From contig JBFMAX010000003.1 in assembly GCA_040755395.1 (NCBI GenBank), forward strand, positions 186,001 to 250,000: a stretch of 64,000 nucleotides of DNA. Reading direction: 5' to 3'. The notes below the pieces were generated by a model, which saw nothing but the letters and a program-made list of their open reading frames with translations, was not told the DNA's origin and did no database searches. This DNA is from Nitrospirota bacterium. Lineage in GTDB: Bacteria > Nitrospirota > Nitrospiria > Nitrospirales > Nitrospiraceae. Below, one piece after another: positions 17,967-64,000 of the stretch (its first letter is position 1; every line of letters starts with the position of its first letter). The translations under genes were made by a program, and so were the position numbers.

Positions 17967-17990
17967 GCTCTCCGAACAGCTTTACCAGGG

Positions 17991-40790: not shown

Positions 40791-40905
40791 CGAGCCATTG
40801 GTACAGGACCGGTCACCGTGTATCCTTGAAGGCAGCTTCGCGGATCAACATGTTGGGCGCGTAGGCGCGTGAAAATGGCCATGACAGAGACAGAGGAGGT
40901 GCGGA

Positions 40906-41517: not shown

Positions 41518-41611
41518 CACAAGGCGCGAACAGTGCTATGCTCAATGGGGAGGAAGCGAGCGCAACAGAGGCGAGGTGGAACGTGGCAATCGATAACAAC
41601 AAGGAGGCACT

Positions 41612-41935: not shown

Positions 41936-42074
41936 GCTGAGGGCACTTCGAACCGGATGATGATCGATTCGTAGGTGGATGGAGCATGACAGTCGAGGCG
42001 GCGTCGGGTGAAGTCCCGGCGCCGCCTTGCTGCGTCCTGAGACAAGAGTCAAAGTTTGCCGGAGGAGAGGAACG

Positions 42075-42998: not shown

Positions 42999-43152
42999 CC
43001 CCCCGCGGTGCTGTCCATGGGGCGCGCGAAGCGGCGCCGCGTTACCACGCTCAGGAGATTCCTGTACAATCCGTTTACCGCGGCGGCCGGGAACCGTCTA
43101 ATGTCATTAGGGAAGACTCGGGCTACGCGGGGGCGCAGGCACGCAGCCGGAT

Positions 43153-43743: not shown

Positions 43744-43763
43744 TGTGCGGAAGGAACAGTGGT

Positions 43764-43907
43764 ATGAAAATGCGGGTCCCATCACCGCCCAGCCGGGTAC
43801 CCGTTGCTCTTTTCCGATTGCAACGGGTGCAAGCTCGCACCCCGCCCGGTGTAGGGACCCCGCTGCGCACGGCCGGGCGCCCAGGTCGGCGCCACCCGCA
43901 TTTTCAT
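43764..43907. repeat. Palindromic MITE-like element, family A copy 3
   Basis: The 13-bp perfect arms ATGAAAATGCGGG (43764) and CCCGCATTTTCAT (43895) match the copy at 4949-5109. The element lies between the sigma factor stop (43743) and the anti-sigma gene (43957). Confidence 0.88.
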
Positions 43908-43956
43908 GCTCCAGGGTGAGCCCACGGCTCATGAATTACTGTGGGAGGGAACGGTG

Positions 43957-44616: not shown

Positions 44617-44659
44617 GCCGGCGCCGCCCATGCTTGCGCCGCTCTGAGAGGCTGCGGTA

Positions 44660-44691
44660 CCCTCTCGCCGAGCATGTGCTCGGGGAGAGGG
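44660..44691. repeat. REP-like hairpin just before CBM48 gene
   Basis: The 15-bp arms CCCTCTCGCCGAGCA and TGCTCGGGGAGAGGG have one mismatch and a 2-nt loop. The right arm contains the GGGGAGAGGG that serves as ribosome site for the ATG at 44692. Confidence 0.8.
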
Positions 44692-45051
44692 ATGGCGGAT
44701 CGGCTTCGAAAAATCGGCCCGGCCTTCGCACTGGGACTGGTCCTGGCGACCTGCGCCGCGCCGGTGTCGCAAATGCCGCGGGCCGGAGCCGACGGTGTCC
44801 GGTTCACGGTCGTGGCGCCGTCGGCGCGCTCGGTCGCGGTGGCGGGCGACTTCAACGGATGGTCGCCGACGGCCCATCCGCTGAAGCCCGCCGGGCGCGA
44901 TGGAGTGTGGAGCGGGGTCGTGGCGATTCCGGAGGGCGAGTATCGGTTCATGTACGTCATCGACGGCAAGCGGTGGCTCACGCCGCCGGCGGCGGACGAC
45001 TTCGTGCGGGATGGATTCGGGAATCTCAATGGCGTGGTGGTAGTGCCGTAA
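44692..45051 (+). CDS. Exported small CBM48 (isoamylase N-terminal-like) protein
   Basis: The 119-residue protein has a signal peptide ending near ATCAAP (possible lipidation). The single domain repeats the anti-sigma CBM48: RSVAVAGDFNGWSPTAHPL and GEYRFMYVIDGKRWLTPPA. It is probably a secreted glucan-binding partner or paralogue of the upstream protein. The start is fixed by the ribosome site provided by the hairpin. Confidence 0.8.
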   Translation: MADRLRKIGPAFALGLVLATCAAPVSQMPRAGADGVRFTVVAPSARSVAVAGDFNGWSPTAHPLKPAGRDGVWSGVVAIPEGEYRFMYVIDGKRWLTPPAADDFVRDGFGNLNGVVVVP

Positions 45052-45055
45052 GACC

Positions 45056-46000
45056 ATGGAAGGAAGCCGGCTCATACTGTCGTCCTCGCCGCGATCGACG
45101 CTCGTGCGTCTGGTTGCGGTGGCCGGACTGTGGCTGGGCGGCGCCGGGACGGCTTTCGGGCAATCCGTTCTGCCGCAAGACTTGGAGGACATCGCCCGTT
45201 TGAGCGCGGCGCAGGGCCGTTCCGCCGAAGAGGTCAAGCCGCTGGTCGAGCTGGCGAACAAAGCCGGCGAGCGAGGTCTCCCGCCCGGACCGCTCGTCAA
45301 CAAGATCAAGGAGGGACTGGCCAAGGGTGTCGAGCCCGCGCGCATCGAACCGGTGCTTCGCGAGATGGCCGGCCGTTTGGAGACGGCGCAGGAGACATTG
45401 AAAGATCTGAGCGGGCGAGGCCTGGTCGATGCCGGGAGCAGCGGACGCCAGCGGGCGGTCGAGGTGCTGGCCGAGGCGTTGGCGCGCGGCGCATCGCCTG
45501 ACGAGGTGAGGGAGATCGGGCGGCTCGCGCAGCAAGGCAAGCCGCGTCTCACGCAAGACGCGCTCGCCTCCGGCGCGAAGAGCCTGGCGGTCATGAAGGA
45601 AGGCGGGGTCCCCTCGGGCGAAGGACTGTCACTCGTCACCGAGGCGCTGCGGCAAGGGTTTCGCCCCTCGGAGCTGGCCGATCTGGGCCGCGAGCTCAAG
45701 CGACGCGGGCGCGAAGGGGGCCTCCCGCTGCAGGCCGTGCAAGACGCGGTCAAACGCGGCAACCGGCCGGATCAGATCTTCCGCGATCGTGGTGACCGGC
45801 GCGGCCAGGGCGGCGGCGGAGGCGACCGGCTGGACCGCAGCGGTCGCGGAGAACGACTCAGAGAAGATCGCGGCTCTCGCGGCGAAGGCCGACCGGAGCG
45901 GCTCGAACACGTTGAACGGCCCGAGCGGGTCGACCGTTCCGGCCCCTCCGAACGACCCGAGCGGCCTGAACGGCCCGACCGATCCGGCAGCGGGCGGTAG
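45056..46000 (+). CDS. Exported protein with RPERPERPDR tail
   Basis: The 314-residue protein has a signal peptide (STLVRLVAVAGLWLGGAGTA). A helical domain of repeated short units (SAAQGRSAEEVKPLVELAN and EGLAKGVEPARIEPVLREM) spans to about residue 225. A Gly/Arg-rich linker leads to the tail VERPERVDRSGPSERPERPE and DRSGSGR. The tail is the same type as in the genes at 39921, 40906 and 41612. Its start lies 5 bp after the CBM48 stop. Confidence 0.75.
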   Translation: MEGSRLILSSSPRSTLVRLVAVAGLWLGGAGTAFGQSVLPQDLEDIARLSAAQGRSAEEVKPLVELANKAGERGLPPGPLVNKIKEGLAKGVEPARIEPVLREMAGRLETAQETLKDLSGRGLVDAGSSGRQRAVEVLAEALARGASPDEVREIGRLAQQGKPRLTQDALASGAKSLAVMKEGGVPSGEGLSLVTEALRQGFRPSELADLGRELKRRGREGGLPLQAVQDAVKRGNRPDQIFRDRGDRRGQGGGGGDRLDRSGRGERLREDRGSRGEGRPERLEHVERPERVDRSGPSERPERPERPDRSGSGR

Positions 46001-46018: not shown

Positions 46019-49000
46019 TTAACGGAATTGATAGCACTGCCAAATCTGCGCTTCGCAAGCACGAGGGTCCCGCAAGATTTGTCGTCCCCAGAACACCAAC
46101 ACCTTCCAACCCATCGCCTGCAAGAGATTCCGTTTATGCGCGTCACTTTCCAGGGTGTCTCGGTTACCGTGATAAGCGAACCCGTCACAATAAATCGCGA
46201 TGCGACGATCCGGGTAGGCAAAGTCTGGCACGGTAATGGGCTTCTGGCTGTGATCACAGACCGGGTATTGAGGCACTGGCTCCGGAAGCCGATCACCTGC
46301 ACGGATCGCGTGAAGCAACGCCTGTTCGATGGCCGTTTCGGATGTGGGCTGCGCTGGCCGATCCGTCTTCAGATGTTCCAACCATTCGAGTGATGAAGCT
46401 CGGCCTCCATGCGCCCGCCCGACGTGCGGTGCCGCTCTTGGCTCAACCATGCTCAGTTGGAAGAGAAAGCTTCGCACCAGCTCTTTATTCAGCAAGGCAT
46501 GGTCGAACTGGTTGCGAGCGGTTTTAAGGCAGCGGTAACACGCTCGCTCGCAGTCATGGTTGTACAGGCGGTCGTAAGACGCTTTTGCCCAGCCGCGAAG
46601 GTCCTGAGCAAGCTGTTCCAGGTACCCAGCGCCGCCGGGTGCAGTCTCGTAGAACACTAAAGTCCAGCCTCCTGCCCCATCTGGATGCTGGAAATAGGCG
46701 ATTTCGTCCTGCTCAATCTCGAGCCGCTCTTGTGCCCCGACCACCAGCGCCTTACCGAGCGTCCGGCAGAATGCAATGGCTTCATCGTTGTCCGCGGGGG
46801 CAATCCCTGGAATAAGAGGAAAGAGCAGCACGTCAGCGAAGAATTCATAGCCGAGGATGAATGGTCGCGGATCTCCGCTGCAGATGCCTCGATGGTTCTC
46901 ATCCCACCGAGCCAGTCGTCTCCCTGTCAGCCCGTGCGGCCGGTGGCGACCACAGATCGGACACAAATCGAATTGCTCGCCTCGATCAGTCTCACGGCTC
47001 TGCCTCCCCCAATTCGTGACCAGGAGGTTGGCATGGTTACGGAACTCGAGCGTCACGAATTCATACGGATAAAGCCGTGCCTCTCGATGCGCAGCGTCCA
47101 GCAAGTGTTCTTGACGCTTGAAGGTCAGGCGCTGCCGACTGTCCTCCGCCGAGGTAATCTGGGTATGTTCCTCCGCTTCAAATGCATCGATCAATGCGAC
47201 TTCGGCCTGGTCGGTCATCCGGTGGCCGCACTGCGGGCAGTTGTTCACGACCTCTTTAGCGGCAAAGCCGCACTGATTGCAGAAGCAAAACCGCTCGACG
47301 CGGCCGGTCTGGTCGGCACCGTGATCGCCAGGACCGGAGCGCCGGCCACCTTCGAAAAAGGCCCGGATGCTTTTGAGCTTGTGCCCGTTGGCATAGACCA
47401 TGTTGCCCGGCGCAAATTCGAAGAGGGCGATCCAGGCGGGTCTCCGCAGCGTCGGTGTGTCGCCCACGCCGGGATCCAGCGAGAACGTATCGGTCGGAAA
47501 TTGGTACGAGGGAAGGACGCCTTCTTCCGCAAAATACGAGAGCACGAAGGCTTTTTCTCGGTCCGTCGTCAATTCCCGATAGGCGCGTTCGCGCGCTCTT
47601 CGCTTCTGCTCCGATTCACGGGTCGAGACGATGCGTGCGTACGCGTGGAATTCGCGGTGTAGACGTATCACCCGCTCGTGCCATCTCGCTACTGTGCGTT
47701 CGAACTCGTCCGGAAAGTCGTTCACGACGTTCGCGACATGGACCTTGTGTCCGAACACGTCGATTGCCTTGGCACTGACCTCTGCGCTGTGCGCCCGCAA
47801 TGCCTCGAGAAGGTGGGCATAACGATCGCGCTTGAGCACGGCCGGATTCTGGATGTCTTCAAGCAATTCGCCCATGAGCCAGGAAAAGTCTTCGTTCAAC
47901 TCTTCCAGTGCAAAAGAACGCGCATGCCGCGCGAGGATTTTCTCATTCGCCAGGCGAACGACGGGCGGTTTGAATTCACCACGGACCAACCAGGCCGGAT
48001 CTTCAAAGCAATGGCGATCATGTGGACCAGCGCCACAGAAGGTAGTCACGAATCCGATACGAAGTCGTCGGCCTGCACGGCCCGCGCGCTGGACATAGTT
48101 GGCCGGCGTATGCGGTGCGTTGCGAAGAAGCACGCTGTAGAGGGAGCCGATATCCACACCGAGTTCCAGTGTTGGGCTGCATACCAGAGCTTCGATCTTG
48201 CCGTCCTTGAATTCCTGCTCGCGCTTGGCCCGGGTGTCCTGATCGATCTGTGCGGTGTGCTCAAGCGCGCGCAGCCGCCGCGGACGGTCGGCGGTGTAGA
48301 GCTGCACGTAATAGTTGCCCGGGTCGGCACTGCTCAGTTGGAGGTCCTCATTGACCCCAGAACATCCGGTTGAGGCCAGGCAGACATCGATCCGGTAGGG
48401 TCGCCAGATCGAGCATTTGCGACATCGCCACCCCTGTTCGGCTTTCACGAGGCGCACGATCCGTTTGGCAAGTTGCAGGGGCCGCTGCCCGTGCAAATGT
48501 CGTCTCACTGGCTCGGGCACAACCGGCGGAGGCTCGAGCATCTCGTACTCACTCAGTAGAGCGATCACTCGCCGGACCCATTCGTCGGCGATCGTGTTGT
48601 CGAGTCCTGCCTTGTCGCACACGAGCTTGGCGATGCCTCCCGCAGCGCCGCGATCCGTGTCTTTGACCAGCGGCTCGAGCTTGATGCCGGAGACCGATCG
48701 GCTGCGCAGCGCTTCAGGCCGGTCGAGCATGAAGAACACAGCACCGCGCTCATGCTCGGGGATGGCCAGTCCATAGGGGTCATCTGTCAGCCAACTCCAT
48801 GGTGTTTTCTTCGGATCGAGAAACGATTGGTAGAAATCGAACGAGACGGCGCGCTTGCGGCGCATGAAATCGAGCATCGCGCGGAGAAGCACCGCGCCCT
48901 TTTCCACCTCGAGATTTGCGCGCCGGCAACAATCGAGAAAACGAGGATCGGTGACGAGCCGGTCCAGAAATTCATACTGCACCTCGACCAGCGCGAGATT

Positions 49001-51184
49001 CTCCAGCGTGATGCGCTGGTGGGAGGCACGGCAAAACTCGCCGGCGATCTCATATTCCAGCGTGCGGCGCCAGGACGCTTCCTCATCTCGGGTGAGGATC
49101 CGTTTTACCAGCCCAATGTTCTGGAAAATTTCTCGCACGCGGTTCGGCAAATCCTGCAGCGCGATGCCGGACGGTCCAGCTTCTCGGACCGCCGCCTCAA
49201 CCGCGTGCCGCAGTGCGAACTGGCGGTGCCGGTCGCTCATATAACCCGCCTGGTGCGCCGCATCCTGCCGGTTATCGGCGAAGATGAGCAGCTTCCGTTC
49301 GTCTTCCGGTACACGGTCGAGGTGATGGGTGCCCAGCACCGACACGCTGGAGGCCACGCCGGTTCGTAACAACGTCAACACATCACCGCGAGTATAGCGG
49401 CTGTTACAAACCGGACAGGTCGAGCCCCGTCCACGCAGCACATGCTGAATGCTCAGATTTTCCTTGGGCACACCGTCAGGTTCGACGGGGAAGACGATCC
49501 CGCGAACATGATCCACATAGAACTGTTTGAGCCGCTTCTCGGCCGCGGTTTGACGGCGACGGCGCGGTCGGGGCTCCTCGTCCTCCGGCTCACCCCCATT
49601 GGTGTCGTCGTCCGAATCGGCGCGTTCGCCGATGAGGAAGGGCGTGATGAAGGCGGTCTCTTCGTCACTGAGGAACTCCTCGTTGGGGATCGTCTGTTCC
49701 TGGTGATCGGGATCGAAGCGAACCTTCACGAAATCCTGCCCGCAGGTGCGGCACAGCACCGCCGGACGGACAGCACCGCCACAAGAACGACAACGATCGG
49801 ACCCATCGGTAGCCAGCGTCCGGCACGCCGGGTTCATGCAGAGCCCGACGTCGTACACGCCGTGGAAAAAGGTGTGTAATTTGGGGCGGAGCAAGGGTGG
49901 GTGCTCGTCGTCACCGTAACTTCCGAGCAAGAGATACGCTTCGATGAGCCGGACCACTGCCTCCCGCGACAGTTGACCGTACGAGGGGACCGTCTTGCGG
50001 AGGACGTCGGCCAGCTCATCGAACGTCTGCGGCAAAGCAGCCGCTAACTGGAGGGTCGAGACCGCACGATTGCCGGCCAAGAGTGCGAGGAGTTTCCGGT
50101 GTGTCGAGCCAGAGGCCGGAGCCTGACGCCCGCAGAGGTATTCCGCGAGCCTTACCAGTTTGTTCTGGTCCGCCTGAGACAACGTTCGCAGGTCTTCTTC
50201 GGACAATTGGACGGCCGGCGGGTCGTAGGGTGGTCCAGAAGCAGGGGTGTCGCGGTAGCGCTCTCCGATGATGTCCGCAGGCTCGAACAATTCGTCGAAC
50301 AGCTCTGTCGCAAAGCGAGCCAGTGCGGCATCGCCGCCCGCATCCTGCGAAACTGTGGCCGACGTGCCGATTGCGTGCAGATCGCCTCGCTTGAGACCAC
50401 ATCGCGCCTTCAACCGGCGCAGGAGGCAGGCAATCTCCGTGGCCAACGCCCCCCGGTAGCTATGGAGTTCGTCGAGCACGACATACCGGAGCGACGGCGT
50501 GAACAGCGAACGGTCAGCCTTTCGGACCAATAGGAACTCGAGCTGCTTGTAGTTGGTCAGCAGGATGTCGGGTGGGTTGTGCCGGATGTCCTCCCGCCGA
50601 GTGAGCTCATGGCGGGCCAGCGGTTCGCCCAGCGCCGACGTCACGGTCTCGCTGTCGCCGGTATAGAGGGCAAACGTGATGCCCGTGTTCGAGTCGCGCA
50701 GGAGGTTCCGCAGGCGCAGCAACTGGTCGTTGGCCAGCGCGTTCATCGGATACAGCAGGATGGCCTTTGTTCCCCGGATTCCTTGCTCCTTCAGCCGCAG
50801 CACCCCGGAGAGCACAGGCAGGAGAAACGCTTCGGTCTTCCCACTGCCGGTCCCCGTCTTGACGATGACATTTCGGCCGCCCTCGACCGCGCGCAGCGCG
50901 TCCTCCTGGTGGGCATACAGGGCCATCGCGCCGAACGGCCAGTGGAGACATGCGAGTGCTGGGTGGCCGCAGCCCGAGGCGAGAAGCTGATCGAGCCGTT
51001 CCCCCTCGGCGAAGTCACGCGCGAGGGTTACGTACGGTCCCTTGACGAGTACCTCGGCACGGTTCACGTGTTTCTCGAACTGGGCACGCAGGTGTGGATC
51101 GGCAAGCCTGTACGAGCTCTTGATGAAGCTGCGGTACTGCTCGATCAGGTGCCGGACGCTTTCGATGACAGAAAAACGCGTCAT
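46019..51184 (-). CDS. Giant DUF1998 helicase with C-terminal Vsr/DUF559-like nuclease
   Basis: The 1721-residue product starts at the ATG at 51184, which overlaps the PIN gene stop by 4 bp (ATGA); an ATG twelve codons upstream is less likely. Helicase motifs: KTGTGSGKTEAF (I, residues 109-120), VLDELHSYRG (II), GTSATVSQ (III), then VCSPTLELGVDIGS and YVQRAGRAGRR. Cysteine clusters occur near CRSCGGAVRPAVLCRTCG and CRKCSIWR. The DUF1998-type segment APGGAGYLEQLAQDLRGWAK with CERACYRCL is near residue 1560. The last 60 residues (VPDFAYPDRRIAIYCDG, then WKVLVFWGRQI) resemble a PD-(D/E)XK Vsr/DUF559 nuclease. Size and layout recall DruE of Druantia and DrmA/DrmB of DISARM. Confidence 0.85.
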   Translation of the reverse strand: MTRFSVIESVRHLIEQYRSFIKSSYRLADPHLRAQFEKHVNRAEVLVKGPYVTLARDFAEGERLDQLLASGCGHPALACLHWPFGAMALYAHQEDALRAVEGGRNVIVKTGTGSGKTEAFLLPVLSGVLRLKEQGIRGTKAILLYPMNALANDQLLRLRNLLRDSNTGITFALYTGDSETVTSALGEPLARHELTRREDIRHNPPDILLTNYKQLEFLLVRKADRSLFTPSLRYVVLDELHSYRGALATEIACLLRRLKARCGLKRGDLHAIGTSATVSQDAGGDAALARFATELFDELFEPADIIGERYRDTPASGPPYDPPAVQLSEEDLRTLSQADQNKLVRLAEYLCGRQAPASGSTHRKLLALLAGNRAVSTLQLAAALPQTFDELADVLRKTVPSYGQLSREAVVRLIEAYLLLGSYGDDEHPPLLRPKLHTFFHGVYDVGLCMNPACRTLATDGSDRCRSCGGAVRPAVLCRTCGQDFVKVRFDPDHQEQTIPNEEFLSDEETAFITPFLIGERADSDDDTNGGEPEDEEPRPRRRRQTAAEKRLKQFYVDHVRGIVFPVEPDGVPKENLSIQHVLRGRGSTCPVCNSRYTRGDVLTLLRTGVASSVSVLGTHHLDRVPEDERKLLIFADNRQDAAHQAGYMSDRHRQFALRHAVEAAVREAGPSGIALQDLPNRVREIFQNIGLVKRILTRDEEASWRRTLEYEIAGEFCRASHQRITLENLALVEVQYEFLDRLVTDPRFLDCCRRANLEVEKGAVLLRAMLDFMRRKRAVSFDFYQSFLDPKKTPWSWLTDDPYGLAIPEHERGAVFFMLDRPEALRSRSVSGIKLEPLVKDTDRGAAGGIAKLVCDKAGLDNTIADEWVRRVIALLSEYEMLEPPPVVPEPVRRHLHGQRPLQLAKRIVRLVKAEQGWRCRKCSIWRPYRIDVCLASTGCSGVNEDLQLSSADPGNYYVQLYTADRPRRLRALEHTAQIDQDTRAKREQEFKDGKIEALVCSPTLELGVDIGSLYSVLLRNAPHTPANYVQRAGRAGRRLRIGFVTTFCGAGPHDRHCFEDPAWLVRGEFKPPVVRLANEKILARHARSFALEELNEDFSWLMGELLEDIQNPAVLKRDRYAHLLEALRAHSAEVSAKAIDVFGHKVHVANVVNDFPDEFERTVARWHERVIRLHREFHAYARIVSTRESEQKRRARERAYRELTTDREKAFVLSYFAEEGVLPSYQFPTDTFSLDPGVGDTPTLRRPAWIALFEFAPGNMVYANGHKLKSIRAFFEGGRRSGPGDHGADQTGRVERFCFCNQCGFAAKEVVNNCPQCGHRMTDQAEVALIDAFEAEEHTQITSAEDSRQRLTFKRQEHLLDAAHREARLYPYEFVTLEFRNHANLLVTNWGRQSRETDRGEQFDLCPICGRHRPHGLTGRRLARWDENHRGICSGDPRPFILGYEFFADVLLFPLIPGIAPADNDEAIAFCRTLGKALVVGAQERLEIEQDEIAYFQHPDGAGGWTLVFYETAPGGAGYLEQLAQDLRGWAKASYDRLYNHDCERACYRCLKTARNQFDHALLNKELVRSFLFQLSMVEPRAAPHVGRAHGGRASSLEWLEHLKTDRPAQPTSETAIEQALLHAIRAGDRLPEPVPQYPVCDHSQKPITVPDFAYPDRRIAIYCDGFAYHGNRDTLESDAHKRNLLQAMGWKVLVFWGRQILRDPRACEAQIWQCYQFR

Positions 51185-51690
51185 GTGAGTCCCCGTTCCA
51201 GCAACGCAGCCGTACGCCATTCGGACAGGCGCTGGCTCCTGAACTGCGACTTCAAATGCTTGAGCGCCGGTTTTGCCCCCGCATGGTTGGCCAATTCCTC
51301 AAGCGCCACGAGGCGATCTGCCCATCCGAGCCGGACAGCGGCGTTGACGGCCGCGCGATCGCAGCAACAGCCGTGCCAGTCGTCATGACGTCCGAGAGCA
51401 TGGGCCCACAAGTGGCGCTCTCCGTCATCCAGCCGGAAACTGTCGGGATCGCGCAAGACAAGGTTCGCCAGTTCGGTGTCGGAGACCGCGTGCACGGTTA
51501 GCCTGGCCTGCAGATCTCCTTCGCTCACCTGAACATAACCCGGTCGGTGCAGATCTCCAGTGCGGGCCTCTTCGCAGCATTTCGGCACCGTCTCAACGCG
51601 AAAGTGGTTTGTCAGAGCGGTCCAGCAGCCGACCCGGACAGCTTCGATGATGATGTTTGTATCCACGAGGATGACTTGTCCGGGCTTCAC
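51181..51690 (-). CDS. PIN-domain protein
   Basis: The 169-residue protein opens with the PIN motif VILVDTNIIIEAV (first catalytic Asp). It continues with an acidic DDGERHLWAHAL segment and CCCDRAAVNAAVRLG, giving the other acidic residues of a PIN site. It may be an RNase. The ATGA overlap with the giant helicase means the two are probably made together. It follows the regulator gene by 15 bp. Confidence 0.78.
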   Translation of the reverse strand: MKPGQVILVDTNIIIEAVRVGCWTALTNHFRVETVPKCCEEARTGDLHRPGYVQVSEGDLQARLTVHAVSDTELANLVLRDPDSFRLDDGERHLWAHALGRHDDWHGCCCDRAAVNAAVRLGWADRLVALEELANHAGAKPALKHLKSQFRSQRLSEWRTAALLERGLT

Positions 51691-51705
51691 ACCAACTTTC
51701 TCGCC

Positions 51706-52812
51706 TCATAAGTCAAATGGAACGGGAAGCCCGTAGTCTTTGAAGAGGCCGGCGAGGTCTTCGATGGTCATTTCCAAAAGAGATGCGGCACGCCGGACCG
51801 AAAGCGCGCCCTTGGCCAACGCTTCTTGCAGACGATGCACAAATTCTTCGCTGAACAACTTTGGTGTCGGCAACGGCTTCCGCGGGCGGCCGTTAGCCGT
51901 CAGGCGCGTATCACGAATCTCCAAGAGGTCCGCCTTGGTCAGCCAGCCGAGTTGCACCAGCCGCCATTTGAGGGCCACCGCTGTGACCATGAGTTCGGTC
52001 GCTACGGTATTGAGCCAAGCATGAATATCGGACTGACCACGGGCTTGCCAGCGAGGGGCCAGCGTACGTTCCGGCATGAGGAGAGCGGAGGCGAAGGTAT
52101 CCGCCAACTGTTCCACACGGCCTCCCTTGCCGCCTCGCGGAATGTCGCCCTCGCGGTGTTCGGGAGGCATCTGCTCCCAGGTGAGCAAGTGAAAGACTTC
52201 GTGCGCCAGATCGTAATGTCGCCGGCCTTCGGGTTCTTTGCGATTGATCAAGATCGCATTAAGGCCAGGCACCTGGCAGGCCGCGCCGGAAATGCTCTTA
52301 GGCGCATCGACATACAGCACCAGTGCCCCAAGCTTTTCCCGCACACGATCCGCGAGGCGCAGAGCGGGGATTTGTCCCAAATCCCACTCGCGACCCAGGG
52401 CCTCGGCAGCCGTGCGCGCCTCTTCATACGTGCTGCTTGCTCTGAGCGGCAGGCGCGGCTGCAGCGGGCCTCCCGCAACGGCTTTGCCCTGCCCCAGTTG
52501 CCGATAGAGGGCAATCCAGCGCCCAGCCTTCTCCTCGAAAGAATCGAGAAGGCCTGCCGTGGCCTCTTTGGACGTGCGCCAGGAGAACGAGCCCTCCCCG
52601 ACCAAGCGAAAACGATCGGTGAAGAAGTCCACGTCCACGTGCAAAACCTGCATCGCGCGAACGAGTTCTTCGGCGCTGAGTTTCCGCTGACCCGCCTCGA
52701 TCGCCGCGACGGTCTGGCGGTCCTTGAAGCCGAGCATCTGGGAGAGTCGGGTTTGGGTGAGACCAGCTCGCTCGCGCGCCAACCGAAAGCGCCGGGATAT
52801 CAAGTCATTCAT
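51706..52812 (-). CDS. XRE-family regulator fused to ImmA/IrrE metallopeptidase
   Basis: The 368-residue product from the ATG at 52812 overlaps the AlbA-type gene by 8 bp; a start at 52836 is possible. Residues 5-60 form an XRE helix-turn-helix (RERAGLTQTRLSQMLGFKDR). The ImmA/IrrE domain includes the zinc motif HEVFH (residues 204-208) in YDLAHEVFHLL. This fusion usually cleaves or senses a repressor and regulates a mobile or defence locus. It may bind the inverted repeat at 56892. Confidence 0.88.
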   Translation of the reverse strand: MNDLISRRFRLARERAGLTQTRLSQMLGFKDRQTVAAIEAGQRKLSAEELVRAMQVLHVDVDFFTDRFRLVGEGSFSWRTSKEATAGLLDSFEEKAGRWIALYRQLGQGKAVAGGPLQPRLPLRASSTYEEARTAAEALGREWDLGQIPALRLADRVREKLGALVLYVDAPKSISGAACQVPGLNAILINRKEPEGRRHYDLAHEVFHLLTWEQMPPEHREGDIPRGGKGGRVEQLADTFASALLMPERTLAPRWQARGQSDIHAWLNTVATELMVTAVALKWRLVQLGWLTKADLLEIRDTRLTANGRPRKPLPTPKLFSEEFVHRLQEALAKGALSVRRAASLLEMTIEDLAGLFKDYGLPVPFDL

Positions 52813-54055
52813 TGTGGGTTCCAGTGTGAGCCGCATAAATCGTCAGCCTCAGCTCGCTTTCGTCGAGGAGGGTGTATTCCGGCAACTTGCCTGACAACTT
52901 TCGGCTTTCTTCGAGTATGATCGGCACCCCTTCGCCGCGTTTGTCCATCAACCGTCCCCGTCCGACGTCGAGATCCACGGCAACCGGGCACTTCGCTAAC
53001 AAGCTCGCGATCAGTTCGTTGCGTGTAGCCTGACGCAACGGGAGACTATCCACAGTCAGCGTATTCGCGAGTGCCCCCGGCGAGTACAGTTCGAGCCGAT
53101 CAGGAAACATGAAAAGCCGAATCTTGGAGCCGTGCATCGAATAATCCCGGTGAGCCACAGCATTGACGACCGCCTCGAAGACGGCGCGCAGGCTGTACTG
53201 CGGAATCTCCACGCGGCCTGGCGATTTGACAGCGGCGATGCGCATGTTACGCTGCACGAACGCCAGGGCTTCCCGGATTTGGGCATCGAGCGGCCCGGTG
53301 ATCGTACGGGCATCCTCCTGATAATTGCTGTCAGGTCGCTCGCTTCGATAATGAACCGCCTCGATACACGCACCCGGGAGCCATTGCTCGGGCTGGTCCG
53401 AGCACAGCAACACGCCACCTACCGTTGCTCGCCAAGCCCCACGCTCGTCTTTGGTGATCAGCTTGAGCTTGCTGAGAAGAACCAAGGGATCGTCCCGCAG
53501 TTCTGCAGCAAAGCGCTCCCAAAGCTCCTTCACAAGCGTGTCCGGCGTCGTCTGAGGAACCGCTTGTTCGTCGAAGCGAATGATGCGGGCCTGGCTGCGC
53601 TGCTGGAATAGGCGTGCCAGTTTTTCAGGCGACATCTCGCGTTTCGAACTCCCGATCCGCTCGAAGTACCCTCCGGGGCTCTTGTGGACGAACAAGCTGT
53701 GGGGGACCTCCACCTTAATGACCGCACGCTCTGTTCCAACCGAATCGGGCAAGGTCATGCGCACGATCTGCGCGGTCAGGGGAGGTTTGAGCGAGTCGTT
53801 GCAGATCTCCCGCAAAACCGCCTCGACTGCATCGAGGCGCTCGATCGGAATTCCCTCCACGTCACGTGTCTTGGCGTCGACGCCAAGCAGAAGCACTCCG
53901 CCGGCCGTATTGGAAAAGGCGGCCAACTCGTCCGCAAGGTCGTCGCGCTTGGGCTCCGCCAACTTCTGACCACGGAACCGAACGGACTTCAGTTCGAACA
54001 CCGAATCCTCGCCAAGTCGGATCTTCTCGATCAGTTCCTCCTTCGTATCAAGCAT
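52805..54055 (-). CDS. AlbA_2/Schlafen-like putative DNA-binding ATP-binding protein
   Basis: The 416-residue product from the ATG at 54055 overlaps the trlF-type gene by 8 bp; longer starts inside that gene were rejected. The N-terminal AlbA-type domain shows VFELKSVRF and DDLADELAAFSNTAGGVLLLG. The C-terminal half carries a HATPase_c_4-like segment AVFEAVVNAVAHRDYSMHGS and LFMFPDRLELYSPGAL. Such proteins are thought to regulate transcription or act on nucleic acid. Its position inside the defence operon suggests a joint role. Confidence 0.85.
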   Translation of the reverse strand: MLDTKEELIEKIRLGEDSVFELKSVRFRGQKLAEPKRDDLADELAAFSNTAGGVLLLGVDAKTRDVEGIPIERLDAVEAVLREICNDSLKPPLTAQIVRMTLPDSVGTERAVIKVEVPHSLFVHKSPGGYFERIGSSKREMSPEKLARLFQQRSQARIIRFDEQAVPQTTPDTLVKELWERFAAELRDDPLVLLSKLKLITKDERGAWRATVGGVLLCSDQPEQWLPGACIEAVHYRSERPDSNYQEDARTITGPLDAQIREALAFVQRNMRIAAVKSPGRVEIPQYSLRAVFEAVVNAVAHRDYSMHGSKIRLFMFPDRLELYSPGALANTLTVDSLPLRQATRNELIASLLAKCPVAVDLDVGRGRLMDKRGEGVPIILEESRKLSGKLPEYTLLDESELRLTIYAAHTGTHNE

Positions 54056-56834
54056 GGCCGCCCCCTTCCACGAGGCGGCGGTACCGCTGCCGGAAGGCCT
54101 GCTCCCCGCCCTCCATGACCCGGCAGATCTCGGCGCGCACCTCTTGCTCCTGCAGGCAACCGCTTTGAACCGCACGGCATTGGCCGTGACGAAAGTCCAT
54201 CACTGTCACCAACTCCGCATCGCCGTTGACCACGATGTTCGGGTTATGCGTCACCACGACGAGTTGCCTGCGCAGCTTGTTTTCGCGAATCTGCCGCACG
54301 ATGAGGTCGTAGATGAGATGGTTATCCAGATCATCTTCCGGCTGGTCGAGCACCATGGGCTCTTCGCCGTACGCAAGCAAAAAGGCGAGCATGGCCGCTG
54401 TGCGCTGGCCTGGCGAACCCTGTTGAATCGGCGTGAAGTCTTGTCCGTCTCCTCGAACGCTGTAGGCAGCGGAGAGTCCATCTTCCGGGAACCAGATCTC
54501 GAGGCGGTCGAGGGTCTCAGGCTTGAGACCACGCAGGTACTTGATAAACCATCCGCCGAAACTCGAGGAATCCTCCCCGCGCGCAACTGCGATCAACTTC
54601 CGCTTCAGCATTGCCAGTCGCTTCTCGATTTCCCTTGCTGCTTCCGCTCGGTCTTGAGGCAGATTGCGATAGAGATCGGCGATTACGCCTTTCGAGCCGT
54701 CTTGGCTCAGAATGTCGTCTTCGAGCCGCTCGTCGGTGCGACCGATCAATTCCCGAAAGCTCCTCTCGGCCTCCTCCGGCGTACACTGATAGGGCCGCAC
54801 GTCGATGCGCACAAAGGGGTTGTCGCGCAGCGCCGTGGCCAAGAAGGCGCCTCGGTCCTCCGTCAGCTTGCCCCGGAGCGAGAGCATCTCATCGCGAACC
54901 TGTGCGGCCTCGATCTGTACTTGCTGGATGGTCTCTTTGAGCCGTTCCAACGCTTTGATCTCCTGTTCCACCACCTGCCGGCGCTGCACGAGCTGGCCGA
55001 ATTGCGCGGGGTCGGCTACGCCCTGGCTGCGCAGCTTCTCCACCCATTGGTGATAGCGTGCTTCGACGGCGGCCAGCTCTTTTTTCCACTTCGATTGTGC
55101 GAGGGCTTCGCGCCAGGTCCTGCCTGCCGACGTGACCCTGTTCTTCAATGTCGCGATCTCGCGTTGTACGCTCGCGATGGCGTCTTTGACTCTGTCCAGC
55201 TCGGCAAGCACCTCCCGATCGCTCGGGTCCTTCTCATCGAAAAGGGAGATATCCAGTGCGCTCAGCGCGGCCTCCTCCCGGGCACGATCCAATGTCTCCA
55301 CGATTCGTGCGACATCTTCCACGACATGGGCCAGCTCGCGGTTTTGACGTTGCCGGCGTTGATAGGCCTTGAGCGTCGCGGCATGGTCGGCACTTGCGAA
55401 GACAGCGAGCTTGCGCGTGAGATCGGCCAGTTCCCCCTGCAGCCTGGAAACGGCCTTACGCCTCTCGGTCAGCTCCCGTTCCTTGGCGCGCAGGGCGAGA
55501 AACCGCACCTCGAACTCGCGCCAGCGACGGTCCCACTCGGAGCGATTCACCTCGCGCGCTTCGTCCACGATGCGTCGCAGCCCCGCCTCGTTCTCGGAGA
55601 GAGAGAACACCTGCTTTTGGCTGAAGATGCGTACCGGAAAGCGCTGAATGATATCGCCGGCTTCGGCCTGCCAGCCGCCATTCGGCTGCTCGCTCTCGAT
55701 CGGGGCCAGCGTCCCCGCCTGATTCCACTGCAGCCGAAAGCGCGTGCCGTCTTTCAAATAAAAAACGCGAACCTCGGTCTGATCGGTCAAGGCGCCGCGG
55801 TCGTCACGGCTGCGCGGCACGCGGTAGAAATCTTCAAAATCTTTGGCCACATTGCCTGTGAGTTCCTTGTCCCGACGCAATCCGATTCGCAGGAACTCGA
55901 CGATTGTGGATTTCCCGGTTCCACGTCCGCCAATCAGTGTGTTCAGCCAGGGATTAAAGCGAAGAATGAGCGGCGCTCCGCGTCCGCAGACTCGTGCATT
56001 GGAAATCTCGACTCCTTCGATGAGCTGCTCGGCGTGCCGGTCGGGATCGGCCGGCTGCCGATCGCTGCGCCGAATGGACAGCGGGGCTCCATCGAGCAAG
56101 GCGAGCCGAAGTCCTTCGAACGAAGGGGTCCCCATCTTGATCCAAGTGAAATGTGAGCCCGGAAACCGTGCGCCGGCTTGGCCGTTCGGATGATGGGAGT
56201 CCGAACCAAGGACTTCGGACAAATGGAGACTATTCCGAAGACCGCCAGGCTTTGGAGCCATCGGATCGCAGATTTCAACTCCGATCAGCTCGGAGGAACA
56301 GAGCAGTTGATCGAGCGAGAGGCCTTGCAGAACACTGAACGCACCTTTCGGCCCGTCCGCATGAGCGAGGATCGGTAAGCCACCTTCAGCCGCGATGGCC
56401 TTGATCACCTCGAGTGATGACAGTGGAGAAACCGCGTTGGACGTGCCCTCTGTCCCTTGCGGAAATTTGATCGCCCCGAGCAGATGGGTGACAGTGTTGC
56501 TGCTGGCATTTAAATCGAAGATCGCAAGGATGTGCACGCCGCCGTTGGCGGCCACTTCCACTCCTGGGAACAGAAACAGGGGGCGGTACTCTGGATGGTG
56601 GTGCTGTTGAAGCTCCTCAAGCGCCTGCTTGAGGCGATCGATCCAGGCGCCGCTGTTGTGATCGGTCACAGCGACGCAATCAATTCCTGCCCGCATAAAG
56701 CCAAGGAGCCAGTCCTCCGGCGTGAGGTTTCGCAAGGCGGCCTGGTTGTTCCCCCTGCCGTAATCATCGGAGGCAGGGGTGTGGGTATGAAAATCAAACT
56801 TCCACCAGCGGGCGCCTGGAAAGTTCCATGTCAT
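54048..56834 (-). CDS. TrlF-type PHP-domain ATPase
   Basis: The 928-residue protein begins with a PHP metal-dependent phosphoesterase domain: FDFHTHTPASDD (His16, His18), VTDHN (Asp58, His59), PGVEVA (Glu93), ILAHAD (His158) and GSDSHH (Asp212, His214). The ATPase follows: IGGRGTGKST (Walker A, about residue 301-310), a long coiled-coil of about 400 residues, MVLDQPEDDLDN (Walker B-type) and VVVTHNPNIV. This is the TrlF-like, Rad50/SMC-like layout. It lies after the promoter at 56885 and overlaps the AlbA-type gene by 8 bp. Confidence 0.9.
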   Translation of the reverse strand: MTWNFPGARWWKFDFHTHTPASDDYGRGNNQAALRNLTPEDWLLGFMRAGIDCVAVTDHNSGAWIDRLKQALEELQQHHHPEYRPLFLFPGVEVAANGGVHILAIFDLNASSNTVTHLLGAIKFPQGTEGTSNAVSPLSSLEVIKAIAAEGGLPILAHADGPKGAFSVLQGLSLDQLLCSSELIGVEICDPMAPKPGGLRNSLHLSEVLGSDSHHPNGQAGARFPGSHFTWIKMGTPSFEGLRLALLDGAPLSIRRSDRQPADPDRHAEQLIEGVEISNARVCGRGAPLILRFNPWLNTLIGGRGTGKSTIVEFLRIGLRRDKELTGNVAKDFEDFYRVPRSRDDRGALTDQTEVRVFYLKDGTRFRLQWNQAGTLAPIESEQPNGGWQAEAGDIIQRFPVRIFSQKQVFSLSENEAGLRRIVDEAREVNRSEWDRRWREFEVRFLALRAKERELTERRKAVSRLQGELADLTRKLAVFASADHAATLKAYQRRQRQNRELAHVVEDVARIVETLDRAREEAALSALDISLFDEKDPSDREVLAELDRVKDAIASVQREIATLKNRVTSAGRTWREALAQSKWKKELAAVEARYHQWVEKLRSQGVADPAQFGQLVQRRQVVEQEIKALERLKETIQQVQIEAAQVRDEMLSLRGKLTEDRGAFLATALRDNPFVRIDVRPYQCTPEEAERSFRELIGRTDERLEDDILSQDGSKGVIADLYRNLPQDRAEAAREIEKRLAMLKRKLIAVARGEDSSSFGGWFIKYLRGLKPETLDRLEIWFPEDGLSAAYSVRGDGQDFTPIQQGSPGQRTAAMLAFLLAYGEEPMVLDQPEDDLDNHLIYDLIVRQIRENKLRRQLVVVTHNPNIVVNGDAELVTVMDFRHGQCRAVQSGCLQEQEVRAEICRVMEGGEQAFRQRYRRLVEGGGHA

Positions 56835-56884
56835 CGCGGAGCCTCATGGGGTAAATGGTGAACCGCTTTGGTTATTGTTCTCGC

Positions 56885-56913
56885 ATTATCCTCTTGCATA
56901 TGATGAAATGCAA
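56885..56913 (-). promoter_or_regulatory. Sigma70-like promoter ahead of trlF-type gene
   Basis: On the minus strand, TTGCAT (-35-like) and GATAAT (-10-like) are separated by 17 bp. The -10 lies about 50 bp upstream of the ATG at 56834, which is preceded by a weak GAGG site. The 182-bp gap from 56835 to 57016 contains no gene. Confidence 0.65.
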
Positions 56914-56915
56914 GA
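56892..56915. promoter_or_regulatory. Candidate operator, 8-8-8 inverted repeat
   Basis: The arms TCTTGCAT (56892) and ATGCAAGA (56908) are perfect, with an 8-bp spacer. The repeat overlaps the -35 box and spacer of the promoter ahead of the trlF-type gene. The XRE-ImmA/IrrE protein encoded downstream in the same island is a reasonable ligand, inferred only. Confidence 0.6.
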
Positions 56916-57016
56916 TTTAATTGCTGCGTGGTCAGGCAGGGACGGTCGACTCGAAAACCAGTTCAGAAATGGCCGAACTCGGTTCACTGACCCAACGCGG
57001 CATCCCCGCACCTACG

Positions 57017-61108
<4,092 letters not shown>

Positions 61109-61110
61109 CG

Positions 61111-64000
61111 TCAGACCCGGGGAAATACAAGCAGCACGCCAAGCGCCTGCGGCTCGGCCGGCTCGGGCACAGTGGCGAAGCGGGTGATTTCTTCGAGTCG
61201 TTGCCGATAATGCGTTTCCACCGCTGCGCGCCTGGCCTGCCAGTTCGTCGCTGCGTGGCGGAACAGCTCCGTCTGCGCTCGCGCACCAGCTCGCTCCTCC
61301 TGTTCCTGCTCGAGAATTTCGGCCAACCGGTCCGTTCGATACTTCTCGGCTTCTTCCCGGAGCACTTGTGCGAGGTGGGCTCGCTTAGTCTGTTCCCGAG
61401 CCACCACCTGGCGGATATAGCGGCGCGCCTCCTCCGTGGCTTGTCCTTGCAAGGCCGCAAAGTTGTGCGCGAAGACTTGCTCGCAGTCGTTCCAGGGTAC
61501 TTCGCCGGCCGGCGTGTCCTCCCGATCGTCAAGCAATGTTCGCGCAATGGTCTGGTCGAGCACCTCGCCTGCTGCCGTGATCGCGATGCCGAAGACCGCT
61601 CCCTTCGGATGGCTCTGGCGTTCGTGAAAGGTGAACAGGGCCAGCGGCGTGGTGGCGATGGGATGGCGGCGGACCGCGATCCGCGCGGCGAAGTGGTTAC
61701 GCGTGGGTTCGAGGGTCAGCTCCTGCCAAGCGTGCTCAGCGATAGCCTGCGCCAGCGGATGCAACCGATGGACGAACTCGACTTGATCGGCGGGATATCG
61801 CACGGCGACGGAACGCCGGAAGGTGGCGCAGTCGTAGCGGGGCGCCACACCCGGTCCTTGCAAGTGGCGCGGGACGTCAATCCTCCAGGTGTCAGGGATC
61901 GTGCTGGGCCGGAGATGGGGGCGAAGCACCTCGCGTATCACCCGTTCGAAGGCGAGGTCGTCTTCGATCAAGGGATCGGCCGACACCGTATCGGCACAGG
62001 GCAGCGTGGGCTCGTCCGGCGCCTGTCCCAGCAGGAGCGGTGCGAGCTGGGTGCTGAATTCGTGCTGCTTGGTTTCGAAGAGGCGCATCAGGGTATCCCC
62101 CTTGCGTGCGCCGTCTTCGGCCGAGGCGATGCTCCCGAGCAGCTCCTCGAGACGGCTGCCTTCGAGAATGCCCAGAATGTCGGGCGTGGAGACGCGATCG
62201 TCGTGCATGGCCGCGATGCGCTGGACCAGCCGGTCGAGCACTCGGTCTTCGGGCGAGTCGGGGTAGAAGAGATAGCGAATGATCGGCGCTCTGGTCTGGC
62301 CGTGGCGATCGATGCGACCATTCCTCTGCTCCAGGCGGTTGGGATTCCACGGAAGCTCGACATGGTAGAGACGGCAGCAGCGCTCCTGCAGATTCAGGCC
62401 TTCGCTTGCGGCATCAGTGGCCAGCAAGACCCGACAGCCCGGTTCACGAAAGCGGGCGATGCGTTGCCTGCGCTGACGAGCACTGAGATCGCCGACCAGG
62501 ACTGCGTAGGCATTTTGCAGCAGAGGATGAGCGTCGAACGCCTCCTGCAATGCGGCAAGTGTGTCACGGTACTCGGTAAACACGATGGCCTTTTCGCCTG
62601 GAACAGGGAGCACGTCGCGTTCGAGGTCGGCGATGAGCGCCACGATCTTGGGATCCGGTCGGCTAGCGACACGATCGAGCAGGTTCTCAATAGTCTTGAG
62701 TTGCCGTTTCTCCGCGTTGCGCCGACGCGCATCGCGCGAGAGCGCTGTCCGCAGAACACGCAGGGCCGTGCGCTCGGCCTGGCTCTCCGCCAGGGGTAGA
62801 TCGCTCTGGAGTTCGCGCAGCTCCGAAGGCTTGGGCGGGTCTTCGTGTTGTCTTGCTGCAAGGGCCTTCAGCCGGTTTGCCACCGTCTGTTTCAGCGCGG
62901 CACGACTTGACAGCATGCGTTTCTTCACAATCTGCATCGCGAACGATACAAGGTCGGCTTCCTCTGAGCCCTCGGCGGATTTGATCGTTTTCGCACAGTA
63001 CTCCGTCACGAGGCGGAACATGTCGCGTTCCTCGTCAGTGAGATTTCTCACCTCGATTCGGCCCACAGGGTGGCGCACCGGGAAGGCGGGCACGACCCTG
63101 CCATCCGAGGTCGTTTTGACGATTTGCGGCTTGAGACGACGGATCATCGTGCGTGCGATACGCCGCTGCACGTCCTCGGTGCGACCGTGGAGGGTGGCTT
63201 CGGCGGGCTCGACGAGTTCCAAGAGCGAGCGGAAGCTGTGTCGATACCCGTTGTGGGGAGTGGCCGTGAGCAGGAGCAGCGTGCGCGAGGCGTTTCGCAG
63301 GTTGGGACCCAGACGGGTGCGCGCCGTCGAATAGGGATTCGCGGGGGTGCCGGATTCCGCAAGGTAATGTGCCTCGTCCACTACAATGACATCCCACGGA
63401 TGGGCCAGCGCCGCTGCATGCACATCGCGGCGCTTCAGATATTCGGTCGAGGTGATGACACGGTCGAAATAGGCCCAAGGCTGCACGCCCTCCGACACTG
63501 CGGTTTGGGCACGGTCGAGCGCCGCCGAGTTCTCGATGGGTTGGAACTCCAACCCGAATTTGTCCCACATTTCGTCCAGCCACTGGGGAATCAGCCCGGG
63601 AGGGACCACGAGGAGAATCCGTTTGCCGATCCCACGGGCGATCAGTTCCAGCAGGCAAATCCCCGCTTCGACGGTCTTGCCGAGGCCGACATCGTCAGCG
63701 ATCAGCAAACCGCGCCGTGGTCCGGCGAGCAGCCGCGCAAGCGGCGCGAACTGATAGGGCTCCGGTGAAATCCGTGCGGCAACAAACGCCGCATACTGCC
63801 CTGGGGGTGGAGATTGGAGGGTGAGCGCGTGATGAAGCGTCAGCCAGTGACTGAACGGGGTGAGGGAGCGGCGATCGAGCGTCGGCTCTGGCTCAATAAG
63901 TGGTTCAAACTCGTCCGGTGGGCACAGTGCTTCGATGGTCTCTCCGCTCGCAGGATCTTCTAATCGGAGCAAGATACGGTCACCAAGAACGGCATTGCTG
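61111..64000 (-). CDS. SNF2-type helicase (DrmD-like), 5' end outside window
   Basis: The frame stays open to the right edge (at least 962 residues visible), with no convincing start; a TTG at 63972 is not a reliable start because codons NAVLGDRILL continue upstream. Motifs: IADDVGLGKTVEAG (I), VVDEAHYLA (II), LLLTATPHNG (III), VLLATDAASEGLNLQ (V) and QRNGRIDRHGQ (VI). The order and style fit SNF2/RapA-like helicases found with DISARM class 1 (DrmD). The methylase gene begins 2 bp after its stop, so the two are a likely translationally coupled pair. Confidence 0.88.
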   Translation of the reverse strand, partial: SNAVLGDRILLRLEDPASGETIEALCPPDEFEPLIEPEPTLDRRSLTPFSHWLTLHHALTLQSPPPGQYAAFVAARISPEPYQFAPLARLLAGPRRGLLIADDVGLGKTVEAGICLLELIARGIGKRILLVVPPGLIPQWLDEMWDKFGLEFQPIENSAALDRAQTAVSEGVQPWAYFDRVITSTEYLKRRDVHAAALAHPWDVIVVDEAHYLAESGTPANPYSTARTRLGPNLRNASRTLLLLTATPHNGYRHSFRSLLELVEPAEATLHGRTEDVQRRIARTMIRRLKPQIVKTTSDGRVVPAFPVRHPVGRIEVRNLTDEERDMFRLVTEYCAKTIKSAEGSEEADLVSFAMQIVKKRMLSSRAALKQTVANRLKALAARQHEDPPKPSELRELQSDLPLAESQAERTALRVLRTALSRDARRRNAEKRQLKTIENLLDRVASRPDPKIVALIADLERDVLPVPGEKAIVFTEYRDTLAALQEAFDAHPLLQNAYAVLVGDLSARQRRQRIARFREPGCRVLLATDAASEGLNLQERCCRLYHVELPWNPNRLEQRNGRIDRHGQTRAPIIRYLFYPDSPEDRVLDRLVQRIAAMHDDRVSTPDILGILEGSRLEELLGSIASAEDGARKGDTLMRLFETKQHEFSTQLAPLLLGQAPDEPTLPCADTVSADPLIEDDLAFERVIREVLRPHLRPSTIPDTWRIDVPRHLQGPGVAPRYDCATFRRSVAVRYPADQVEFVHRLHPLAQAIAEHAWQELTLEPTRNHFAARIAVRRHPIATTPLALFTFHERQSHPKGAVFGIAITAAGEVLDQTIARTLLDDREDTPAGEVPWNDCEQVFAHNFAALQGQATEEARRYIRQVVAREQTKRAHLAQVLREEAEKYRTDRLAEILEQEQEERAGARAQTELFRHAATNWQARRAAVETHYRQRLEEITRFATVPEPAEPQALGVLLVFPRV

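What the first reader, a model, noticed from the sequence alone, without database searches (positions are those of the whole stretch)
46019..64000. Composite defence island: DISARM-like helicase-methylase pair joined to TrlF, AlbA/Schlafen, ImmA/IrrE, PIN and a giant DUF1998 nuclease-helicase
Seven minus-strand genes lie in tight order. The first two match the DrmD/DrmMI-type pair of class 1 DISARM, and the last resembles DruE (Druantia) or a DrmA-DrmB fusion with an added nuclease. In between are a PHP-ATPase, an ATP-binding AlbA-type protein, a regulator with peptidase and a PIN protein. Canonical DISARM (drmD, drmMI, drmA, drmB, drmC) and Druantia lack this middle set as I know them, so the operon may be a distinct or hybrid system.
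Basis: partly seen in the sequence, partly recalled or inferred. Interest (0 to 1): 0.87.

Follow-up and report, generated by a model that had tools for sequence, protein, structure and literature searches.

The report
ARMADA defence operon with embedded switch
This is a bacterial anti-phage operon of the recently described ARMADA type, with a regulator-plus-ribonuclease pair and an optional second defence cassette inserted between its DNA-methylating half and its DNA-destroying half; the pattern suggests a plug-in on/off switch that is also found at the same place in some DISARM systems and in prophages.

Summary
The seven minus-strand genes are real and complete; the first starts 41 bp beyond the window. 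Three are the core of ARMADA (Bell et al. 2025, PMC12458937), not DISARM or Druantia: BrxHII-like helicase, PglX-like methylase, and a one-piece YprA/DUF1998 helicase with Vsr-type nuclease. The middle genes are two separable cassettes. (1) XRE-ImmA/IrrE plus PIN is fixed between armB and armC in 6/6 members of this ArmC clade; the same pair sits between methylase and drmA in three DISARM loci, and in 33 viral contigs. (2) TrlF-AlbA is optional (2/6); elsewhere it sits inside type III and type I restriction operons or stands alone. A palindromic operator, ATCTTGCA-N10-TGCAAGAT, overlaps a core promoter after armB; its TTGC-N12-GCAA core precedes XRE-ImmA in ARMADA, DISARM and prophages, and a strict form occurs once in this 4.1-Mb genome. 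TrlF-AlbA lies exactly between operator and immA. Best model (inferred): a CapH/CapP-like, ssDNA-sensitive repressor-protease keeps the nuclease half and toxins off until infection. In A-B-C-ordered loci the armB-armC junction is a recurrent cargo site (13/19 against 8/104 other junctions). Verdict: new variant of a known kind.

The parts
61111..64000 (-). ArmA-like BrxHII/RapA-type SNF2 helicase; CDS continues to ATG at 64041, 41 bp beyond the window
   Evidence: Walker A and DEAH intact
57017..61108 (-). ArmB-like PglX/Eco57I-type adenine methylase with NPPW
56885..56915 (-). Putative operator/promoter: TCTTGCAT-N8-ATGCAAGA (56892-56915) with -35 TTGCAT (56908-56913) and -10 GATAAT (56885-56890)
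   Evidence: position-conserved upstream of XRE-ImmA modules in ARMADA, DISARM and prophages
54048..56834 (-). TrlF/Ppl-family PHP + SMC-like ATPase; optional cassette with AlbA
   Evidence: absent in G044, L064, L065, L066
52805..54055 (-). Schlafen AlbA_2 + HATPase_c_4 (RecG C-terminal-like) protein; partner of TrlF
   Evidence: pair also on plasmids and inside R-M operons
51706..52812 (-). XRE repressor fused to ImmA/IrrE metallopeptidase (RmrA/CapP-like), HExxH intact
51181..51690 (-). PIN-fold ribonuclease-like protein, 4-nt overlap with armC
46019..51184 (-). ArmC-like YprA helicase: DEAD/Helicase_C, MZB/DUF1998, C-terminal MTES_1575/Vsr-type nuclease

Best explanation
A direct-restriction defence operon of the ARMADA kind (ArmA helicase, ArmB methylase, ArmC helicase-nuclease) split into two transcription units by an inserted control cassette. 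The downstream unit, [TrlF-AlbA]-XRE/ImmA-PIN-ArmC, is read from a promoter whose core is covered by a palindromic operator for the XRE-ImmA protein. The methylase half (armA-armB) is made without this control. In an uninfected cell the XRE domain keeps PIN, ArmC and TrlF-AlbA low. DNA damage or ssDNA made during infection activates the ImmA/IrrE peptidase, the repressor is cleaved, and the nuclease helicase plus the backup RNase and exonuclease modules are produced. PIN and TrlF-AlbA then act as backup growth-arrest or nuclease effectors if direct restriction fails. Shown: gene content, homology, conserved linkage, operator/promoter position, catalytic motifs, modular distribution. Inferred: repression, ssDNA trigger, toxicity, backup role, anti-phage activity.
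For: Core: and PMC12458937 (ARMADA definition; an E. coli type II system protects non-abortively). Clade linkage of XRE-ImmA + PIN: window, G358, G044, L064, L065, L066. Same pair between methylase and drmA in DISARM, two of the three with the same 4-nt PIN/drmA overlap, at 42-50% identity although core genes are only about 27-32% identical. Operator/promoter: core motif in 28 of 30 viral loci, 10 of 11 other XRE-ImmA loci, 0 of 17 junction stretches from loci without this pair, one strict site in the genome with 0 in the control. The HTH model superposes on restriction-modification controller proteins C.AhdI (TM up to 0.84) and C.Esp1396I, and the peptidase on IrrE, PprI-ssDNA and CapP. Precedents: CapH+CapP, where ssDNA-activated cleavage derepresses immune operons (PMC13373217), and PprI sensing ssDNA (PMC10904395). 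TrlF-AlbA recurs inside type III (mod-trlF-albA-res) and type I R-M operons. Ppl is reported as an ssDNA exonuclease gated by nucleotide pools (PMC12904381).
Against: No expression, toxicity or phage data exist for this locus. The motif alone is not diagnostic in a very large collection: only 4 of 72 exact 16-base matches in viral contigs precede an XRE-ImmA gene. A terminator between armB and the operator on the operon strand was not found and the consensus sigma-70 scan did not call the promoter at its threshold, so read-through from armA could also express the second half. HTH and peptidase are in one chain, unlike CapH/CapP, so cleavage in cis or trans is unknown.
Confidence: 0.58

Rival explanations
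1. XRE-ImmA + PIN is only an addiction-type toxin-antitoxin pair that stabilises the operon and regulates itself; it has no functional tie to ARMADA restriction.
For: ImmA antitoxin-PIN pairs are a known TA kind (PMC10440598); the pair occurs orphaned on two plasmids and in prophages.
Against: Its position between methylase and YprA helicase is the same in 6/6 ARMADA-clade loci and in three DISARM loci, with PIN overlapping the helicase gene, and the operator precedes the whole downstream unit.
Confidence: 0.22
2. All seven proteins form one integrated defence complex, a new seven-gene system.
For: Tight coupling of genes 3-7; all seven conserved in G358.
Against: G044, L064, L065 and L066 lack TrlF-AlbA; L070 has A-B-C alone; TrlF-AlbA and XRE-ImmA-PIN live in other contexts.
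Confidence: 0.08
3. A DISARM or Druantia variant.
For: Best PADLOC 2023 models are DrmD, DrmMI and DruE; that library predates ARMADA.
Against: DISARM equivalog cut-off not reached, drmA/drmB fused, no drmC, no Druantia partners; the trio fits ARMADA.
Confidence: 0.05
4. The middle genes are passengers: the armB-armC junction tolerates insertions and the cargo is a random sample of defence-island genes with no selected link to ARMADA.
For: Varied cargo at the same junction in other loci (Hachiman-like, AbiE, RES, RT, Abi_2).
Against: XRE-ImmA-PIN has stayed in 6/6 loci of a clade spanning several phyla, and all cargo seen is defence- or toxin-like where it could be annotated.
Confidence: 0.07

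Closest known systems
ARMADA (Bell et al. 2025, PMC12458937)
   Same: BrxHII-like helicase, PglX-like methylase, one-piece YprA helicase with C-terminal Vsr-type nuclease; gene order A-B-C as in type II and in the reversed type I loci of archaea and cyanobacteria
   Different: No ArmD (GajB/RelE); four genes inserted between armB and armC; ArmC forms its own clade, apart from the C-A-B type I loci sampled here
DISARM class 1
   Same: SNF2 helicase and methylase order; three DISARM loci carry the same XRE-ImmA + PIN pair and operator in the same slot
   Different: drmA and drmB counterparts fused into one protein with an added nuclease; no drmC in the operon
RosmerTA and ImmA-PIN toxin-antitoxin pairs (PMC10440598)
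   Same: XRE-ImmA antitoxin-type protein beside a PIN-like protein
   Different: Embedded in ARMADA, PIN gene overlaps armC, operator lies ahead of a whole defence unit
CapH+CapP controllers (PMC13373217) and IrrE/PprI-DdrO (PMC10904395)
   Same: HTH repressor plus ImmA/IrrE peptidase next to an immune operon; peptidase domain superposes on CapP and PprI
   Different: One fused polypeptide; sits in the middle of the operon
C-protein-controlled R-M systems; PrrC inside hsd (PMC12707154)
   Same: XRE controller between modification and restriction functions; accessory growth-arrest gene embedded in a restriction operon
   Different: Peptidase-linked controller; effectors are PIN and TrlF-AlbA
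Ppl/TrlF (NCBIfam NF042955/NF045780)
   Same: PHP + SMC-like ATPase along the full length
   Different: Below the Ppl equivalog cut-off, above the TrlF cut-off; paired with an AlbA/Schlafen protein

Membership tests
ARMADA | BrxHII/RapA-like SNF2 helicase (ArmA) | tested here: met
ARMADA | PglX-like methylase with NPPW (ArmB) | tested here: met
ARMADA | YprA helicase with DUF1998/MZB in one chain and C-terminal Vsr-type nuclease (ArmC) | tested here: met
   MZB 7e-12, MTES_1575 1e-9, vsr 8e-4
ARMADA | ArmC falls inside the published type I or type II clade | tested here: inconclusive
   Own clade with support 1.0, separate from C-A-B loci; no reference ArmC sequence could be obtained
ARMADA | BrxA-like insert and zinc-binding modules in ArmC | not tested
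   protein longer than the structure-prediction limit; only CxxC motifs noted
ARMADA type II | GajB/RelE ArmD after ArmC | tested here: not met
   next gene is on the other strand
ARMADA type I | YprA gene first (general arrangement) | tested here: not met
   order A-B-...-C; the paper allows this order in archaea and cyanobacteria
DISARM class 1 | DrmD equivalog score | tested here: not met
   459 bits against cut-off 610
DISARM class 1 | separate drmA, drmB and drmC genes | tested here: not met
Druantia | DruE plus DruH or type I/II partners | tested here: not met
   only DruE-like similarity; no other Druantia component among the operon proteins
RosmerTA / ImmA-type TA | XRE + ImmA protein beside a toxin-like gene | tested here: met
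RosmerTA / ImmA-type TA | toxicity of PIN and neutralisation by XRE-ImmA | not testable with these tools
   needs expression assay
CapH/CapP-type controller | HTH + HExxH peptidase with operator-like palindrome over the promoter of its own unit | tested here: met
   (sequence evidence only; binding not shown)
CapH/CapP-type controller | two separate proteins | tested here: not met
   fused in one chain
CapH/CapP-type controller | ssDNA-activated cleavage | not testable with these tools
   needs biochemistry
TrlF family | NCBIfam NF045780 cut-off | tested here: met
   614.6 against 350
Ppl | NCBIfam NF042955 equivalog cut-off | tested here: not met
   621.6 against 1000

The most novel reading that the evidence does not exclude
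XRE-ImmA + PIN with its TTGC-N12-GCAA operator is a general plug-in damage switch that inserts between the modification and destruction genes of methylation-based defence systems (ARMADA, DISARM). It makes only the destructive half inducible and lets further cassettes (TrlF-AlbA and others) be placed under the same control. Prophages carry the same switch with the same operator half-site, so prophage-encoded repressors could silence, or be induced together with, the host's ARMADA or DISARM.
Probability: 0.3. Interest if true: 0.78.

Novelty: new variant of a known kind. Interest (0 to 1): 0.62.

Why it matters
How multi-gene methylation-based defences avoid killing their own host when they arrive or are over-expressed is an open question. 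A conserved repressor-protease and operator placed exactly between methylase and helicase-nuclease, shared by two different system families and by prophages, makes a specific answer testable: constitutive modification, damage-inducible destruction. It also shows that the armB-armC junction is a recurrent place where other defence and toxin genes enter an existing operon, which can guide searches for new systems.

Tried and rejected
DISARM or Druantia membership: rejected on cut-offs and gene structure. One indivisible seven-gene system: rejected because TrlF-AlbA is optional. Reference ArmC from E. coli ATCC 8739: two stretches of about 50 kb near leuX/ahr held no ARMADA, and a plasmid search with a type II-like ArmC found only Synechocystis, so type assignment stays open. 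Reverse motif search over viral contigs: only 4 of 72 sites precede XRE-ImmA, so the motif alone is not diagnostic. ArmC search in viral contigs found nothing. First ArmC tree run timed out and was redone on 47 sequences. The PDB sequence search with the PIN protein gave nothing; a model and Foldseek resolved it. Common insertion site: no shared flanking genes among window, G358 and G044, so no empty-site test was made.

Full report
OBSERVATION. The seven minus-strand genes exist at the stated place and are intact. The first, an SNF2 helicase, most likely starts at an ATG at 64041, 41 bp past the window. Upstream, beyond an unassigned ORF, lies a DHH/CBS/poly(A)-polymerase-head housekeeping gene on the other strand, so the operon is complete. 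Downstream, the next gene is convergent. Genes 1-2 are 2 nt apart. Then comes a 182-bp gap, and genes 3-7 are coupled by 8-, 8- and 4-nt overlaps and one 15-nt gap.

CORE IDENTITY. PADLOC (2023) names the outer genes DrmD, DrmMI and DruE, but the DISARM equivalog cut-off is not reached (459 against 610 bits) and the last gene is a single chain with DEAD helicase, MZB/DUF1998 and a C-terminal MTES_1575/Vsr-type nuclease. That trio (BrxHII-like helicase, PglX-like methylase, YprA helicase with Vsr nuclease) is what Bell et al. 2025 call ARMADA (PMC12458937); they show direct non-abortive protection by an E. coli type II system. The window lacks ArmD. Its order A-B-C matches type II and the reversed type I loci that the paper reports for archaea and cyanobacteria. 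In a tree of 47 ArmC proteins the window falls in its own clade (support 1.0), apart from the C-A-B type I loci. Assignment to a published type was not possible without reference sequences.

THE MIDDLE GENES ARE TWO CASSETTES. In the same family, G358 has all seven genes (61-88% identity) and G044 has A-B-XRE/ImmA-PIN-C without TrlF-AlbA. A scan of genome contigs gave three more members of this ArmC clade, in Rhodocyclales, Gammaproteobacteria and Gemmatimonadetes MAGs (L064-L066). All three have XRE/ImmA-PIN and none has TrlF-AlbA. So XRE/ImmA-PIN is in 6/6 and TrlF-AlbA in 2/6. A slightly more distant locus (L070) has A-B-C only. The operon sits in different neighbourhoods in the three family members; in G358 it is next to type III-B CRISPR genes.

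XRE/ImmA-PIN ELSEWHERE. Plasmid searches with the PIN protein found five relatives. Three are in DISARM class 1 operons, in the order methylase-...-XRE-PIN-drmA-DUF1998. In two of them (L147, L149) PIN and drmA overlap by the same 4 nt as PIN and armC here. The pair is 42-50% identical to that of the window, whereas the core genes are only about 27-32% identical, which suggests exchange of the pair between system types. ARMADA copies form one clade in the XRE-ImmA tree, the three DISARM copies group with one plasmid orphan, and the prophage copies group together. In viral contigs the PIN has 33 relatives, 32 of them directly beside XRE-ImmA, and in the one upstream gene that was tested (L162) with a serine recombinase nearby. 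Only a small minority of the 53 plasmid DrmA records carry the pair.

OPERATOR AND PROMOTER. The gap after armB contains TCTTGCAT-N8-ATGCAAGA. Its left arm holds a -35-like TTGCAT and a -10-like GATAAT follows 17 nt later. The core TTGC-N12-GCAA lies upstream of XRE-ImmA in 28 of 30 viral loci, against 0.02 expected per 150 bp from the same contigs, and in 10 of 11 other loci. It is absent from 17 junction stretches of loci that lack the pair. The strict form occurs once in the 4.1-Mb genome even with one mismatch allowed, with none in the reversed control. In G044, L066 and the DISARM loci the operator is immediately before XRE-ImmA. In the window and G358 it is before trlF, so TrlF-AlbA lies exactly between operator and immA and would be under its control. 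In L064 and L065 a conserved 95-aa ORF occupies that position. The recognition-helix region is conserved across ARMADA, DISARM and prophage copies. Caveats: scanned blindly over viral contigs the 16-base form mostly hits unrelated places (4 of 72), and the plain consensus scan did not call this promoter.

XRE-ImmA AND PIN. XRE-ImmA matches RmrA, CapP and spr1629-type repressor models and has HExxH at residue 204. Its AF2 model (pLDDT 88) matches IrrE, PprI-ssDNA and CapP in the peptidase, and the R-M controller proteins C.AhdI (TM up to 0.84) and C.Esp1396I in the HTH. PIN keeps the acidic catalytic residues and the fold (pLDDT 93; VapC4 among the best matches). Literature: ImmA antitoxins pair with PIN-like proteins (PMC10440598); CapP is activated by ssDNA and cleaves CapH to derepress immune operons, and such damage-responsive regulators are reported next to BREX, Pycsar, CBASS and DISARM (PMC13373217); PprI senses ssDNA (PMC10904395).

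TrlF-AlbA ELSEWHERE. In G084 and G075 the pair lies between a type III-like methylase and Res. On IncC and IncA plasmids it lies between hsdR and hsdS. In G091 TrlF-AlbA follows a SNF2/ATPase/PglZ-like cluster with a PIN. On Pseudomonas plasmids it stands alone. Related Ppl is described as an ssDNA exonuclease released by nucleotide depletion (PMC12904381). The setting resembles PrrC embedded in hsd as a guard (PMC12707154).

THE JUNCTION AS A CARGO SITE. In 19 A-B-C-ordered loci the B-C junction is opened by 300 bp or more in 13, against 8 of 104 other junctions (Fisher p 3e-8). One of the 13, L073, may be a frameshifted methylase, and the loci are neither independent nor a random sample: they were chosen for similarity to this ArmC. 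Cargo includes HamA-helicase (L102), PLD + AbiEi-AbiEii (L105), HEPN-RES (L098), Abi_2 (L076), AlbA (L113); L089 (PIN), L068 (AAA-DUF4143) and L136 (reverse transcriptase) show the same in loci outside the 19. In G358 the junction also holds a duplicated tail of armB, a recombination scar.

MECHANISM. Shown: composition, conserved linkage, operator position, intact motifs, modular distribution. Inferred: the methylase half is made independently; XRE-ImmA represses the downstream unit; ssDNA from infection triggers the peptidase; ArmC, PIN and TrlF-AlbA are then produced. Not shown: any activity. No terminator between the halves was found and read-through is possible.

VERDICT. ARMADA-like core with an embedded, cross-system control cassette and an optional guard cassette: a new variant of a known kind, with a testable regulatory hypothesis.

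Noticed in passing
L048:2208-8233 (genome G358): Type III-B CRISPR genes (Cmr2/Cas10, a RAMP protein, Cas_NE0113) lie directly beside the ARMADA operon.
   Followed up: partly
L049:4118-5438 (G358, armB-trlF gap): Between full-length armB and the operator lie small ORFs and a second copy of the 3' end of armB (86 aa, 55% identity), a recombination scar.
   Followed up: partly
L102:5625-9960: HamA plus a DEAD helicase (Hachiman-like pair) sits inside an ARMADA-like operon between methylase and helicase-nuclease.
   Followed up: partly
L161-L193 (viral contigs): XRE-ImmA + PIN pairs in prophage-like contigs, many with two tandem operator copies upstream; their role in the phage is unknown.
   Followed up: partly
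L064:8048-8335 and L065:8075-8362: Conserved 95-aa ORF of no Pfam family between operator and immA.
   Followed up: partly
window 39921-46000: Run of plus-strand genes for secreted-looking proteins with low-complexity RPER/RSGR tails, plus a sigma-factor-like protein and a protein with a CBM48/AMPK1-CBM domain.
   Followed up: no
window 15180-23177: Two large RHS-repeat proteins on the minus strand, partly in a stretch of lower GC (14-20 kb).
   Followed up: no
L147:701-2489: Two further small DNA-binding-protein + PIN/VapC-type pairs directly upstream of drmD in a plasmid DISARM locus.
   Followed up: no
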